From: Cedecea neteri
GTDB taxonomy: Bacteria; Pseudomonadota; Gammaproteobacteria; Enterobacterales; Enterobacteriaceae
Length of the DNA stretch: 64,000 bases
Direction of reading: 5' to 3'
Assembly (NCBI RefSeq): GCF_000758325.1
Contig: NZ_CP009459.1
Location: 310,001-374,000, forward strand
Positions within the stretch are counted from its first letter, which is position 1. Each line of letters starts with the position of its first letter. The translations under genes were made by a program, and so were the position numbers. Of the stretch, positions 17,428 to 21,088 are shown one piece after another. The notes below the pieces were generated by a model, which saw only the letters and a list, made by a program, of their open reading frames with translations, was not told where the DNA came from and searched no databases.

Positions 17428-17471
17428 TTGACATCACCTATCAGTTCTCATAATTTCAACTTGTATACAAG
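17428..17471 (+). promoter_or_regulatory. Promoter and GntR-type operator of the amidase/aldolase operon
   Basis: TTGACA (17428-17433) is followed by TAATTT at 17451-17456 (17-base spacer) or CATAAT at 17449-17454 (15-base spacer). A perfect 12-base palindrome CTTGTATACAAG lies at 17460-17471, just downstream of the -10 element and 45 bases before the permease start. TTGTATACAA-like palindromes are typical operators of FCD-type GntR regulators, and one such gene closes this operon. Repression by that protein, relieved by the substrate, is the likely arrangement. Confidence 0.6.
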
Positions 17472-17515
17472 ATGAATACAACAAATCGTGGCGCGACCAA
17501 CTTCAGGATAATGCT

Positions 17516-18838
17516 ATGAATAATCATCCAACATCTCTTACGGCTAGCCAGCCGGGCATCACTGAAAAAGTCCGGGCACGCGGCAGGTTGCGCTGGGGTC
17601 TGGGCCTGCTTTTCTTTGTGATCGGTCTGATCGCTTATATGGACCGCGCTAATATCTCCATCGTCGCTGAGCATATGATGCGTGACCTGGGTATGACGAA
17701 AGTCGAATTTGGCCTCCTGGGCGCTCTGTTTTCACTAGGCTATGCCCTGGCACAAATCCCCAGCGGTATGCTGGCAGAACGGTTTGGCTCCCGGCTGATT
17801 GTCAGTCTGAGTCTCTTGTTATGGTCTCTCTTTACGCTGCTGACAGCCCTGACGCCCCGCTTTATTTGGTTGTGTGTAGTGCGTTTTCTGTTTGGTGTCG
17901 GTGAAGCCCCAACCTACCCCGGTAACGCGGTATTCAACAGTTGGTGGTTCCGCAAAAATGAAAAAGCACGCGCTGCAAGCCTGCTGCTGGCTGGCTCTTA
18001 CTTTGGCCCCGTGATTGCACCTACGATTACGGTGTTAATTATGCTTGCCTGGGGCTGGCACGCGGTGTTCTACATTTTTGGCGCCGCCGGCGTCGCTGTT
18101 GCGCTGCTTTGGTACTTCCTTGCTCGGGACAGGCCGGATGTACATCCATGGATCTCAAGCGCGGAGCTGAAGCATATTCGTGAGGGTCGTGCAATTTCGC
18201 CGAAGGAGGCGAAAGCGAAAGCACCATGGCGCCAGTTCATGCGTAATCGTGAGTTTTGGGCTGTCGGGATCCAGTATTTCTTCGTGGTGTATATGACCAC
18301 GCTATTCATGATCTGGCTGCCCACCTATCTCCAGGAAGCTCGCGGGTTCTCTCTTACACACATGGGTATTGCAGCCAGCTTCCCGTGGCTTGCCATCTGC
18401 CTGTGCGTACTTTTTGGCGGCAAATTGTCGGATAGCTTACTGCAGCGCGGCCGTTCACTGATGGCGGCTCGTGGCTACCTGGCTATAGCAGGCTTCATTC
18501 TGTTTATTCTCGGCACGCTGGGCGTAGCGATCACGCTCAACCCTTTCCTTAGCGTGTTCTGGCTGACGCTGACGCTGGGTGCCCTCGGGCTACCCGTGGT
18601 GGTTTCCTGGGCCGTTGCCGCCGATAAAGGCCAACAATATTCGGGGTCGGTCAGCGGCTGGATGAATCTTTGGGGGAACCTCGGGGGCGTGGTTTCCCCG
18701 GTGCTGTGCGGCTTTCTTGCCCAGCATTTCGGCTGGAATACCGCCCTGCTGTTTAACATCGTGCCGATTACTCTCGCGATTGTCTGCTGGTTCTTCATCA
18801 AGCCCGATCGTCCACTTACCCCTTCCCAACGCGCTTAA
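17516..18838 (+). CDS. MFS permease, anion:cation symporter (ACS) family
   Basis: This 440-residue, 12-helix uptake transporter probably carries an organic acid with protons. The ACS hallmark IAYMDRANISIVAEHM is near residue 40. The loop motif GMLAERFGSR follows, and RFLFGVGEAPTYPGNAVFNSWWFRKNEKARA is the family's helix 4-5 signature, familiar from glucarate, galactonate and hexuronate permeases. It is the first gene of a four-gene unit: the RraA-like gene starts ten bases after its stop, with AAGGAG in front. The substrate is presumably what the downstream amidase and aldolase act on. Confidence 0.9.
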   Translation: MNNHPTSLTASQPGITEKVRARGRLRWGLGLLFFVIGLIAYMDRANISIVAEHMMRDLGMTKVEFGLLGALFSLGYALAQIPSGMLAERFGSRLIVSLSLLLWSLFTLLTALTPRFIWLCVVRFLFGVGEAPTYPGNAVFNSWWFRKNEKARAASLLLAGSYFGPVIAPTITVLIMLAWGWHAVFYIFGAAGVAVALLWYFLARDRPDVHPWISSAELKHIREGRAISPKEAKAKAPWRQFMRNREFWAVGIQYFFVVYMTTLFMIWLPTYLQEARGFSLTHMGIAASFPWLAICLCVLFGGKLSDSLLQRGRSLMAARGYLAIAGFILFILGTLGVAITLNPFLSVFWLTLTLGALGLPVVVSWAVAADKGQQYSGSVSGWMNLWGNLGGVVSPVLCGFLAQHFGWNTALLFNIVPITLAIVCWFFIKPDRPLTPSQRA

Positions 18839-18847
18839 GGAGCCTTT

Positions 18848-19507
18848 ATGTTTACGTTAAACCCACGCGTCTCTGGTATTAGCCCCGCTCAGGTAAAAGA
18901 GGTGGCTGAAGTTTGCCCTTCAACACTGGGCCACATGACCGATTTTGGTTTTATTAAATCACTCTCATCAATTCTTCCCGGAAAGCGCTTCGCGGGGAAT
19001 GCAGTGACAGTACGCATTCCTCATATGGACTCCTGCGCCGTACATAAAGTGTTTGATACGGTGCAACCTGGCGATGTGGTTTGTATCGATATGTCGGGCG
19101 ATGTCGACCGGGCATGCTGGGGAGAACTGGTTTCTTATATGGCTCGCGCCAGCAACATCGCGGGGGCGGTTATCGACGGCTGCGTAACCGATCTGCGCGC
19201 ACTGCGTGAAATTGGGGTCCCGCTTTACGCCCGCGATGTCAGTCCGCTCACAACCCGTATTTTAGGCATTGAAGGCGCAATTAACGTCCCGGTTTCTATT
19301 TGTGGTGTAACGGTGAATCCGGGAGACCTGATCCTTGCCGATGACGACGGGGTTATGGTTATTCCCCCCGAGCAGGTAAGCGGGTGGGCGGAACGCGCGC
19401 TGAAAGCCCAGCACGCGGAAATCGCTATTAAACAGCGCATTGATAACGGCGAATCCCTGGCAACAATTTCCGGGGCGACACGTTTCTTTGAGCAGGAGTC
19501 CCGCTAA
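18848..19507 (+). CDS. RraA-like aldolase/decarboxylase (HMG-aldolase family)
   Basis: This 219-residue protein belongs to the RraA/dimethylmenaquinone methyltransferase-like family. Characterised catabolic members are class II 4-hydroxy-4-methyl-2-oxoglutarate aldolases that also decarboxylate oxaloacetate. Visible marks are STLGHMTDFGF near residue 20, the glycine-rich core GDVVCIDMSGDVDRACWGE, the metal/substrate loop AVIDGCVTDLRAL and the late VNPGDLILADDDGVMVIP. It is longer than RraA itself (about 160), and its operon context is catabolic, so an aldolase role is more likely than RNase E inhibition. Its stop and the next start share one base (TAATG), which means tight coupling with the amidase. 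Confidence 0.85.
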   Translation: MFTLNPRVSGISPAQVKEVAEVCPSTLGHMTDFGFIKSLSSILPGKRFAGNAVTVRIPHMDSCAVHKVFDTVQPGDVVCIDMSGDVDRACWGELVSYMARASNIAGAVIDGCVTDLRALREIGVPLYARDVSPLTTRILGIEGAINVPVSICGVTVNPGDLILADDDGVMVIPPEQVSGWAERALKAQHAEIAIKQRIDNGESLATISGATRFFEQESR

Positions 19508-20313
19508 TGAAAATTGCGCTGGGGCAGTTCACTACCGATACGGACAAGGCCGTTAACCTGGCAAAAGCGGAGGCTGCAATTCAGGAAGCCAGCCAGAATG
19601 GCGCCAAACTTCTGGTGCTACCGGAAACCTTCATGGCTTTTATTTCTCCGTCTTCTGCTACCTGTTATGCGGATATCGCCGAGCCCCTTGAGGGGCCTTT
19701 TGTCACCGGGCTTTGCGCTGCCGCCCGTGCAGCCGATATTTATCTTATCGTTGGGATGTTTGAACGTAATCCCGAAGATAATATCCGCGCCTGGAACACC
19801 ACGTTACTAATAGATAACCACGGCAAGCTACTGCATGCCTACCGCAAAACACATCTGTACGATGCATTTTCCTACCAGGAGTCCCGCAATATTATTCCGG
19901 GGGATAACCCGCTTAAAGTGGTTGAAACTGAAATGGGCCGCATCGGGTTAATGGTTTGCTATGAGCTTCGTTTCCCAGAGATAGCTCGGGAGCTGGCGCT
20001 TCAAGGGGCCGATTTGCTTATCGTCCCCACGGCCTGGGTTCACGGGCCGCTTAAGGAACAGCATTTCCAGGCGCTGGTCTCTGCCCGCGCGCTGGAAAAT
20101 ACTCTGCCAGTGGTGGCCTGCGATCAAACGGGAAATATCTACAGCGGGCGTAGCCTGGTATGCGATGCGATGGGCGTAGCCCGCAACAGTATGGGGATCG
20201 AACAAGGCTTGATTTACAGCGAAATAGATTATGAGCATACGCGTAAAACCCGGGAGGCACTGCCTTGCCTTGGGCATCGCCGCGCGGAACTCTATAGTCA
20301 CCTGAACAAATAA
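19507..20313 (+). CDS. Nitrilase-superfamily amidase (carbon-nitrogen hydrolase)
   Basis: This 268-residue cytoplasmic hydrolase of the carbon-nitrogen hydrolase superfamily has the complete Glu-Lys-Cys triad: Glu40 in LLVLPETF, Lys114 in YRKTHLYD and Cys151 in GLMVCYELRFPE. The CYELRFPE text is like that of the omega-amidase/deaminated-glutathione-amidase (Nit1/Nit2, YafV, YbeM) branch, which hydrolyses terminal amides of 2-oxo acids. Coupled to an RraA-like aldolase, it may deamidate a 2-oxo-acid amide before cleavage; this is inference. A GC-rich hairpin (GCGCCCG...GCGGGCGC) lies after the stop, before the regulator gene. Confidence 0.87.
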   Translation: MKIALGQFTTDTDKAVNLAKAEAAIQEASQNGAKLLVLPETFMAFISPSSATCYADIAEPLEGPFVTGLCAAARAADIYLIVGMFERNPEDNIRAWNTTLLIDNHGKLLHAYRKTHLYDAFSYQESRNIIPGDNPLKVVETEMGRIGLMVCYELRFPEIARELALQGADLLIVPTAWVHGPLKEQHFQALVSARALENTLPVVACDQTGNIYSGRSLVCDAMGVARNSMGIEQGLIYSEIDYEHTRKTREALPCLGHRRAELYSHLNK

Positions 20314-20412
20314 TCTACCCGCGCCCGTAGCTCCCTGATTGCGGGCGCTTGTCCCTCTTCGGGCAACTTCTTATACTCAGGGACTCCACGCAGGTTAAGG
20401 AAACCATGCAGT

Positions 20413-21042
20413 ATGTCAGAGCACTCCCTGAGCCATCAGGCGTATATCGCCATCAAGAACCGGATCATCAAGCGTGAGTATCGGCGTGATAGCTATACCT
20501 CTGAGAATCAGCTGGTCGAAGAGCTGGGCATGAGCCGGACGCCGATTCGCGAGGCGCTGCACCAGCTGCAAAGCGAAGGTTTGCTCAAAATCATCCCGCG
20601 CAAAGGGATCCTTATTCAGCAACTCTCCCTCAAAGAGATCCGCGACTACTACGACTTGCGGTTGGCCATTGAGCTGCAAACGCTGCGCCAGCTGCAGGGT
20701 TACCTGACGGAAGAGCATTTTAGCCCGCTGGAGACGCTCATTTGCAGACAGCAGGATGCATTAGACCACCAGGCCTACGATCGCTGGCTTGAAGAAGATA
20801 AAAACTTCCATCGGTATCTGATGTCGCTGACCAACAATGACGTTTTTCTTGAGCTGTCCGACAACATCCGGCAGCGAGTTTACTACCAGCCCGATCCCTT
20901 ACGCCGCCACGCCTATTACACCGCCTCCACAGAGGAGCATAAAGCTATCGTCGCAGCCCTGAGAAATCAGGATATTGAGCTGGCCGAGCAGTTGATGACA
21001 ACGCATATTCTGCGTGGCCGGGAGAAAGCAGTATCGGGTTAA
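20413..21042 (+). CDS. GntR-family regulator with FCD domain
   Basis: This 209-residue transcription factor has an N-terminal winged helix (YTSENQLVEELGMSRTPIREALHQLQSEGLL, residues about 26-56) and a C-terminal all-helical FCD ligand domain. The FCD domain keeps the usual metal-binding layout (Asp/His around FHRYLM, then a late EEHKAIVAALRNQD and QLMTTHIL). It is the last gene of the permease-aldolase-amidase unit and probably represses that unit through the palindrome at 17460-17471. Start 20413 keeps the domain intact; an out-of-frame ATG at 20406 opens only a short frame. A strong terminator follows. Confidence 0.9.
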   Translation: MSEHSLSHQAYIAIKNRIIKREYRRDSYTSENQLVEELGMSRTPIREALHQLQSEGLLKIIPRKGILIQQLSLKEIRDYYDLRLAIELQTLRQLQGYLTEEHFSPLETLICRQQDALDHQAYDRWLEEDKNFHRYLMSLTNNDVFLELSDNIRQRVYYQPDPLRRHAYYTASTEEHKAIVAALRNQDIELAEQLMTTHILRGREKAVSG

Positions 21043-21052
21043 CGCTCTGAGG

Positions 21053-21088
21053 CAAAAAAGCCCCGTCAGTAAGCTGACGGGGCTTTTT
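21053..21088 (+). terminator. Strong bidirectional terminator between the GntR gene and lysS
   Basis: AGCCCCGTCAG (21059-21069), a TAAG loop and CTGACGGGGCT (21074-21084) form a perfect 11-pair stem followed by TTTT. The preceding A-run (21054-21059) gives a T-run on the other strand, so it serves the converging lysS transcript too. Confidence 0.92.

What the first reader, a model, noticed from the sequence alone, without database searches (positions are those of the whole stretch)
17428..21042. Compact operon for an amide-containing oxo acid between actS and lysS
Permease, RraA/HMG-aldolase-like enzyme, omega-amidase-like nitrilase and FCD-GntR are tightly packed. Omega-amidases remove the amide from 2-oxo-acid amides and HMG aldolases cleave 4-hydroxy-4-methyl-2-oxoglutarate to two pyruvates. 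Together they could degrade the oxo form of 4-hydroxy-4-methylglutamine or related substituted glutamines, which occur in some plants. I know of no described pathway with this gene set. No transaminase is present, so uptake of the oxo acid itself or use of a general transaminase is needed.
Basis: inference. Interest (0 to 1): 0.6.

Follow-up and report, generated by a model that had tools for sequence, protein, structure and literature searches.

The report
Operon for oxidised-glutamine lactam breakdown
This bacterium carries a small operon that probably imports and breaks down the oxo form of glutamine (or a close relative), using an amidase together with a previously undescribed type of RraA protein that we think opens the compound's inert ring; the same enzyme pair recurs in very different bacteria.

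Summary
The four-gene operon is real: MFS permease, RraA-fold protein, nitrilase-family amidase and FCD-GntR, between actS and lysS. A perfect palindrome, CTTGTATACAAG, precedes it in this genus and in three Providencia. The essential aldolase Arg123 is Thr (rarely Ser) in all 89 members of this RraA clade, while all 41 other RraA homologues tested keep Arg. The metal ligands Asp124 and Glu199 are kept. In 67 of 87 loci this Thr-type RraA lies next to a nitrilase, against 0 of 41 Arg-type loci (shorter flanks). Two different nitrilase branches serve as partner, and both score best against 'deaminated glutathione amidase', which cleaves alpha-ketoglutaramate amides. Another 17 loci, and one Vibrio-like genome, place the Thr-type RraA inside citrate-siderophore operons; the Vibrio-like one is achromobactin-type. 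Most likely mechanism (inferred, untested): alpha-ketoglutaramate-type compounds are 99.7% inert lactam (2-hydroxy-5-oxoproline); the RraA protein opens the lactam by a metal-assisted hemiaminal cleavage, and the amidase then releases 2-oxoglutarate plus ammonia or an amine. This would be a new activity on a known fold.

The parts
17428..17456 (+). Probable promoter: TTGACA (17428-17433), 17 nt, TAATTT (17451-17456)
   Evidence: Read from the sequence; a TTTGACA box at a similar distance from the operator is present in G296 and the three Providencia. The consensus scan did not list it.
17460..17471 (.). Perfect palindrome CTTGTATACAAG, probable operator of the GntR protein
   Evidence: Only match in the window with up to 2 mismatches; exact copy upstream of the permease in all five operons examined.
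17516..18838 (+). MFS permease, organic-anion (ACS) type, 440 aa
   Evidence: Pfam MFS_1 9.1e-65; best NCBIfam TIGR00893 3.8e-75, below its cut-off.
18848..19507 (+). Thr-type RraA-fold protein, 219 aa; T114-D115 in place of Arg123-Asp124
   Evidence: Pfam RraA-like; AlphaFold pLDDT 95.8; closest fold HMG/CHA aldolase 3NOJ, Z 28.7, 218 residues; Thr-type clade one side of a branch, SH-aLRT 100.
19507..20313 (+). Nitrilase-superfamily amidase, YbeM-type, 268 aa; Glu40-Lys114-Cys151
   Evidence: NF033621 deaminated glutathione amidase 240.5 bits, best family but below cut-off 355; Nit2/Nit3/NitFhit nearest solved relatives.
20413..21042 (+). FCD-type GntR transcription regulator, 209 aa
   Evidence: Pfam GntR 1.9e-15 and FCD 3.3e-22.
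21060..21088 (.). Probable terminator hairpin GCCCCGTCAG-TAAG-CTGACGGGGC then T5, between gntR and lysS
   Evidence: Read from the sequence; not listed by the scan.

Best explanation
A GntR-controlled uptake and breakdown operon for 2-oxoglutaramate-type compounds: the oxo form of glutamine, which exists almost wholly as the lactam 2-hydroxy-5-oxoproline, or an N-substituted relative. The MFS permease imports the anion. The Thr-type RraA protein, using its retained divalent-metal site (D115, and E191 probably from the neighbouring subunit), opens the hydroxylactam to the open-chain 2-oxo amide. This is the nitrogen counterpart of the retro-aldol done by its HMG-aldolase cousins: the metal activates the tertiary alpha-hydroxy acid and the C-N bond breaks, so the enolate-stabilising Arg123 is no longer needed. 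The amidase then hydrolyses the open-chain amide to 2-oxoglutarate plus ammonia or an amine. Shown: genes, operon, conserved operator-like palindrome, fold, Thr-for-Arg replacement, conserved pairing, amidase family. Inferred: substrate, ring-opening activity, direction of transport, repressor role.
For: (1) The pair is conserved across Enterobacterales, rhizobia, Rhodobacterales, Paraburkholderia, Brevibacillus, Chloroflexi and Nitrospinota, with at least four importer types; 67 of 87 Thr-type loci have the nitrilase, 65 within 1.5 kb, against 0 of 41 Arg-type loci searched over about 1.5 kb each side. (2) Two separate nitrilase branches fill the amidase slot: YbeM-type (NF033621 best) in the window, Providencia, Brevibacillus and Chloroflexi, and Yersinia/Nit-type (NF043013 best) in Shinella and Nitratireductor; both models are deaminated glutathione amidases, and deaminated glutathione is an N-substituted alpha-ketoglutaramate. 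(3) The remaining Thr-type genes are mostly in NIS siderophore loci (17 of 20). In one Vibrio-like genome the gene overlaps an SbnC-type synthetase gene inside an AcsD-containing, achromobactin-ordered operon, and the baumannoferrin cluster lists an RraA family protein, BfnG; achromobactin and baumannoferrin contain alpha-ketoglutarate. (4) The lactam is 99.7% of the compound at neutral pH, inert to omega-amidase and slow to open (PMC10452834), so a ring opener would help. (5) The lactam is abundant in plants (PMC9806585) and excreted in animal urine (PMC12864753), fitting plant- and gut-associated hosts. (6) Metal ligands kept, Arg123 lost.
Against: No biochemical data for any member. Amidase scores lie below the curated cut-offs, so the substrate may differ. 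The free lactam opens spontaneously, so an opener is helpful but not strictly required. S. aureus makes the alpha-ketoglutarate siderophore staphyloferrin B without an RraA gene in its cluster (own knowledge), so the activity is not obligatory there. Side genes (EutBC in four loci, HyuAB in about seven, GlpA/B-like oxidases) are not explained by unsubstituted 2-oxoglutaramate. Transporter relatives do not name the ligand. I did not check whether BfnG itself is Thr-type. Most of the 80 scanned loci were chosen by similarity to Thr-type seeds.
Confidence: 0.5

Rival explanations
1. One reading: amidase makes 4-hydroxy-4-methyl-2-oxoglutarate from its amide and the RraA-like protein cleaves it as an HMG/CHA aldolase to two pyruvates (or decarboxylates oxaloacetate made from 2-oxosuccinamate).
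For: Fold is that of HMG/CHA aldolase; metal ligands conserved; omega-amidases accept 2-oxosuccinamate (reference titles).
Against: Arg123, needed to stabilise the pyruvate enolate in this chemistry, is Thr/Ser in all 89 clade members (PMC5065237); Asn71 and Arg195 equivalents changed; no HMG-related gene recurs nearby; siderophore operons have no use for it.
Confidence: 0.07
2. Carbamoyl/ureido pathway: the nitrilase is a carbamoylase and the RraA protein a lyase for a ureido-alpha-hydroxy acid (ureidoglycolate-like), with an allantoate-type anion permease.
For: Ureidoglycolate cleavage is chemically the same hemiaminal cleavage (own knowledge); N-carbamoylputrescine amidase is the second-best family of the window amidase; HyuAB genes follow the module in about seven loci.
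Against: Both amidase branches score best as deaminated glutathione amidases and carry the CY[DE]xRFPE arginine; Nit1/Nit2/Nit3 structures rank far above carbamoylases for the Shinella protein; siderophore link is to alpha-ketoglutarate, not urea.
Confidence: 0.12
3. The module degrades N-substituted alpha-ketoglutaramates only (opine-like or siderophore-derived amides), not the free lactam; the released amine is processed by locus-specific side genes such as EutBC.
For: EutBC directly follows the transporter genes in L055, L062, L072 and precedes RraA in L083; FAD oxidase or HyuAB genes take that place elsewhere; deaminated glutathione is itself N-substituted.
Against: Window and Providencia operons have no such side gene; most loci have none that recurs.
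Confidence: 0.2
4. The RraA-like protein is not an enzyme but a protein-binding regulator, like E. coli RraA.
For: Shared fold with RNase E inhibitor RraA.
Against: Residues at or near the pocket and metal site (G28-H29, D61, D85, C90-W91-G92, D115, T135-T136, D165, E191) are invariant among 31 rows; close coupling to a catabolic amidase or a siderophore synthetase, not to RNA genes.
Confidence: 0.04

Closest known systems
HMG/CHA aldolase (LigK/ProA/GalC type; PDB 3NOJ)
   Same: Fold (Z 28.7, 218 residues, 1.7 A), metal ligands Asp124 and Glu199, Thr145.
   Different: Essential Arg123 is Thr; Asn71 is Ser; Arg195 is Ala; new invariant G28-H29 and C90-W91; separate clade.
Omega-amidase / deaminated glutathione amidase (Nit2, Nit1, YbeM)
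   Same: Triad, CY[DE]xRFPE motif, best family scores, expected 2-oxo amide chemistry.
   Different: Encoded in an uptake operon with RraA rather than as a stand-alone repair enzyme; this genome has a separate YbeM-like gene (39% identical).
Glutamine transaminase-omega-amidase (glutaminase II) pathway
   Same: Same proposed substrate and product (2-oxoglutaramate to 2-oxoglutarate).
   Different: No transaminase; dedicated importer; proposed ring-opening enzyme, not described for this pathway in the papers found.
Achromobactin / staphyloferrin B / baumannoferrin siderophore clusters
   Same: Thr-type RraA (or an RraA family gene) beside synthetases for alpha-ketoglutarate-containing citrate siderophores.
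   Different: No siderophore genes at the window locus; S. aureus staphyloferrin B cluster has no RraA (own knowledge).

Membership tests
HMG/CHA aldolase | RraA/aldolase fold | tested here: met
HMG/CHA aldolase | Catalytic Arg123 | tested here: not met
   Thr114 at the aligned site; Thr/Ser in 89 of 89 clade members, Arg in 41 of 41 others.
HMG/CHA aldolase | Metal ligands Asp124 and Glu199 | tested here: met
   D115 aligns directly; E191 by extending that alignment without gaps; both invariant.
HMG/CHA aldolase | Curated family score (NF006731, TIGR02798) | tested here: not met
   114.4 and 107.9 bits against 179 and 304.5.
Deaminated glutathione amidase / omega-amidase | Glu-Lys-Cys triad | tested here: met
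   E40, K114, C151.
Deaminated glutathione amidase / omega-amidase | CY[DE]xRFPE arginine next to catalytic Cys | tested here: met
   VCYELRFPE in the window, same motif in all partners.
Deaminated glutathione amidase / omega-amidase | Curated NCBIfam cut-off | tested here: not met
   240.5 of 355 bits for NF033621; the model is an 'exception' model for a narrow group.
Deaminated glutathione amidase / omega-amidase | Hydrolysis of the 2-oxo amide | not testable with these tools
   Needs an assay.
FCD-GntR regulator with palindromic operator | GntR HTH plus FCD domain, and a conserved inverted repeat at the promoter | tested here: met

The most novel reading that the evidence does not exclude
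Thr-type RraA proteins are the first dedicated enzymes for opening and closing the hydroxylactam of alpha-ketoglutaramates: openers in catabolic operons, and ring closers or iron-release factors in alpha-ketoglutarate siderophore operons.
Probability: 0.33. Interest if true: 0.8.

Novelty: new variant of a known kind. Interest (0 to 1): 0.6.

Why it matters
2-Oxoglutaramate, the product of glutamine transamination, sits 99.7% as a lactam that omega-amidase cannot use, and no enzyme that opens it was found in the papers searched. A conserved RraA-amidase pair gives a concrete candidate for that missing step and a candidate bacterial pathway for a metabolite abundant in plants and excreted by animals. 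It would also reassign a set of proteins now annotated as RraA or 4-hydroxy-4-methyl-2-oxoglutarate aldolase, and suggest a role for the unexplained RraA gene in alpha-ketoglutarate siderophore clusters.

Tried and rejected
HMG aldolase and oxaloacetate decarboxylase: rejected on Arg123. Ligand from transporter relatives: the TRAP and PotD-type binding proteins match many solved proteins with no decisive ligand. E. coli genomes hold no copy at DNA level. My first naive ORF clustering was swamped by antisense ORFs in GC-rich genomes and was replaced by homology mapping and a codon-usage caller. Literature searches for a ring-opening enzyme or an RraA-amidase pathway found none. Isatin hydrolase and kynurenine formamidase appear in the fold list only at Z about 7-8, too low to use.
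Full report
OBSERVATION. The four genes are present and co-directional: MFS 17516-18838, RraA-like 18848-19507, nitrilase 19507-20313, GntR-FCD 20413-21042, between actS and lysS. The first three are nearly contiguous; gntR follows after 99 bp. Two of eight genomes of the genus carry the operon, the second at the same actS/lysS site. Three Providencia carry the same four genes. A perfect palindrome CTTGTATACAAG lies downstream of -35/-10-like boxes in all five, which fits autoregulation by the GntR protein (inferred).

THE RraA PROTEIN IS NOT A NORMAL ALDOLASE. Its AlphaFold model (pLDDT 95.8) matches HMG/CHA aldolase 3NOJ over 218 residues at Z 28.7. In that enzyme Arg123 stabilises the pyruvate enolate: R123A has no detectable activity, R123K loses 181-fold in kcat; Asp124 and Glu199 bind the metal (PMC5065237). 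By alignment these are T114, D115 and E191 here. Thr or Ser occupies the Arg123 site in all 87 sequences plus the second species of the genus and the Vibrio-like L007; all 41 other homologues found in the order- and class-level searches have Arg. The scan patterns did not include that position, though the 80 loci kept were the most similar ones. The Thr-type proteins form one side of a branch with SH-aLRT 100. D115 and E191 are invariant in the 31-row set, so the metal site seems intact while the pyruvate-specific part is gone.

THE PARTNER. 67 of 87 Thr-type loci hold a nitrilase, 65 of them within 1.5 kb; none of 41 Arg-type loci, searched over about 1.5 kb on each side, does. Importers differ: ACS-type MFS, PotD-type ABC, TRAP, Opp-type ABC. 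The enzyme pair, not the transporter, is the conserved core. The amidases fall in two branches. Window, Providencia, Brevibacillus and Chloroflexi proteins score best on NF033621 (YbeM type); Shinella and Nitratireductor proteins score best on NF043013. Both models are deaminated glutathione amidases; deaminated glutathione is cleaved to alpha-ketoglutarate, cysteine and glycine (PMC7041631), so it is an N-substituted alpha-ketoglutaramate. For the Shinella protein the nearest solved relatives are Nit-Fhit, Nit2, Nit3 and yeast Nit2, far ahead of carbamoylases. All scores are below curated cut-offs, so this names a class, not a substrate.

THE SIDEROPHORE LINK. Of the 20 loci without a nitrilase, 17 (Halomonas relatives and Paenibacillus) place the Thr-type gene in NIS siderophore loci with IucA/IucC synthetases and FecCD-type uptake genes. 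In the Vibrio-like genome G287 (L136) it is the last gene of an operon ordered NIS, decarboxylase, MFS, NIS, HpcH, NIS, RraA; the first synthetase is AcsD (1e-188), the last is SbnC-type (387 bits, below its cut-off) and overlaps the RraA gene. The baumannoferrin cluster of Acinetobacter lists bfnG as RraA family, and baumannoferrin contains alpha-ketoglutarate (PMC10483418). Achromobactin also incorporates alpha-ketoglutarate (PMC9989332). From own knowledge, SbnC/AcsA-type synthetases add alpha-ketoglutarate through its gamma carboxyl, and the product cyclises to a hydroxylactam. In the tree the siderophore group nests inside the nitrilase-linked group. What links both settings is an amide of alpha-ketoglutarate.

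MECHANISM. Alpha-ketoglutaramate is 99.7% lactam at physiological pH; only the 0.3% open chain is an omega-amidase substrate and ring opening is slow near pH 7.2 (PMC10452834). The lactam carries a tertiary alpha-hydroxy carboxylate, as do HMG and CHA. Breaking its C-N bond is the nitrogen analogue of the retro-aldol of HMG/CHA aldolases, but no pyruvate enolate forms, so Arg123 is dispensable. I therefore propose that Thr-type RraA opens (or, in biosynthesis, closes) hydroxylactams, and the amidase pulls the open form to 2-oxoglutarate. The lactam is a widespread plant metabolite (PMC9806585) and is excreted in urine (PMC12864753), which suits the rhizobial and Providencia hosts.

WHAT IS NOT EXPLAINED. 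EutBC is contiguous with the module in three Agrobacterium-type loci and in Caulobacter without an amidase; HyuAB or GlpA/B-like oxidases take that place in others. These suggest N-substituted substrates in some lineages. Transporter relatives did not reveal the ligand.

VERDICT. Observation confirmed; interpretation partly supported: an amide of a 2-oxo acid is likely, HMG aldolase is not. The set is not described in the papers I could search.

Noticed in passing
L136 9922-12406: Thr-type RraA gene overlaps an SbnC-type siderophore synthetase gene in an achromobactin-ordered operon of a Vibrio-like genome; the role of RraA in siderophore operons is unexplained.
   Followed up: partly
L055, L062, L072, L083: Ethanolamine ammonia-lyase genes eutBC are contiguous with the Thr-type RraA module, hinting at ethanolamine release from the substrate.
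   Followed up: partly
L071, L076, L078, L080, L088, L090, L095: HyuA/HyuB (hydantoinase/oxoprolinase-type) genes follow the RraA-ABC module; L095 has a gamma-glutamyltransferase and no nitrilase.
   Followed up: no
L052, L060, L077: Paenibacillus siderophore loci have a luciferase-like monooxygenase directly after the Thr-type RraA (which has Ser in place of Thr).
   Followed up: no
L137 830-3378: In the second species of the genus an integrase and a SIR2-like gene lie just beyond actS beside the operon, suggesting an island at this site.
   Followed up: no
L028 14934 onward: In Brevibacillus the module uses an oligopeptide-type ABC importer and is followed by a creatininase-family gene.
   Followed up: no
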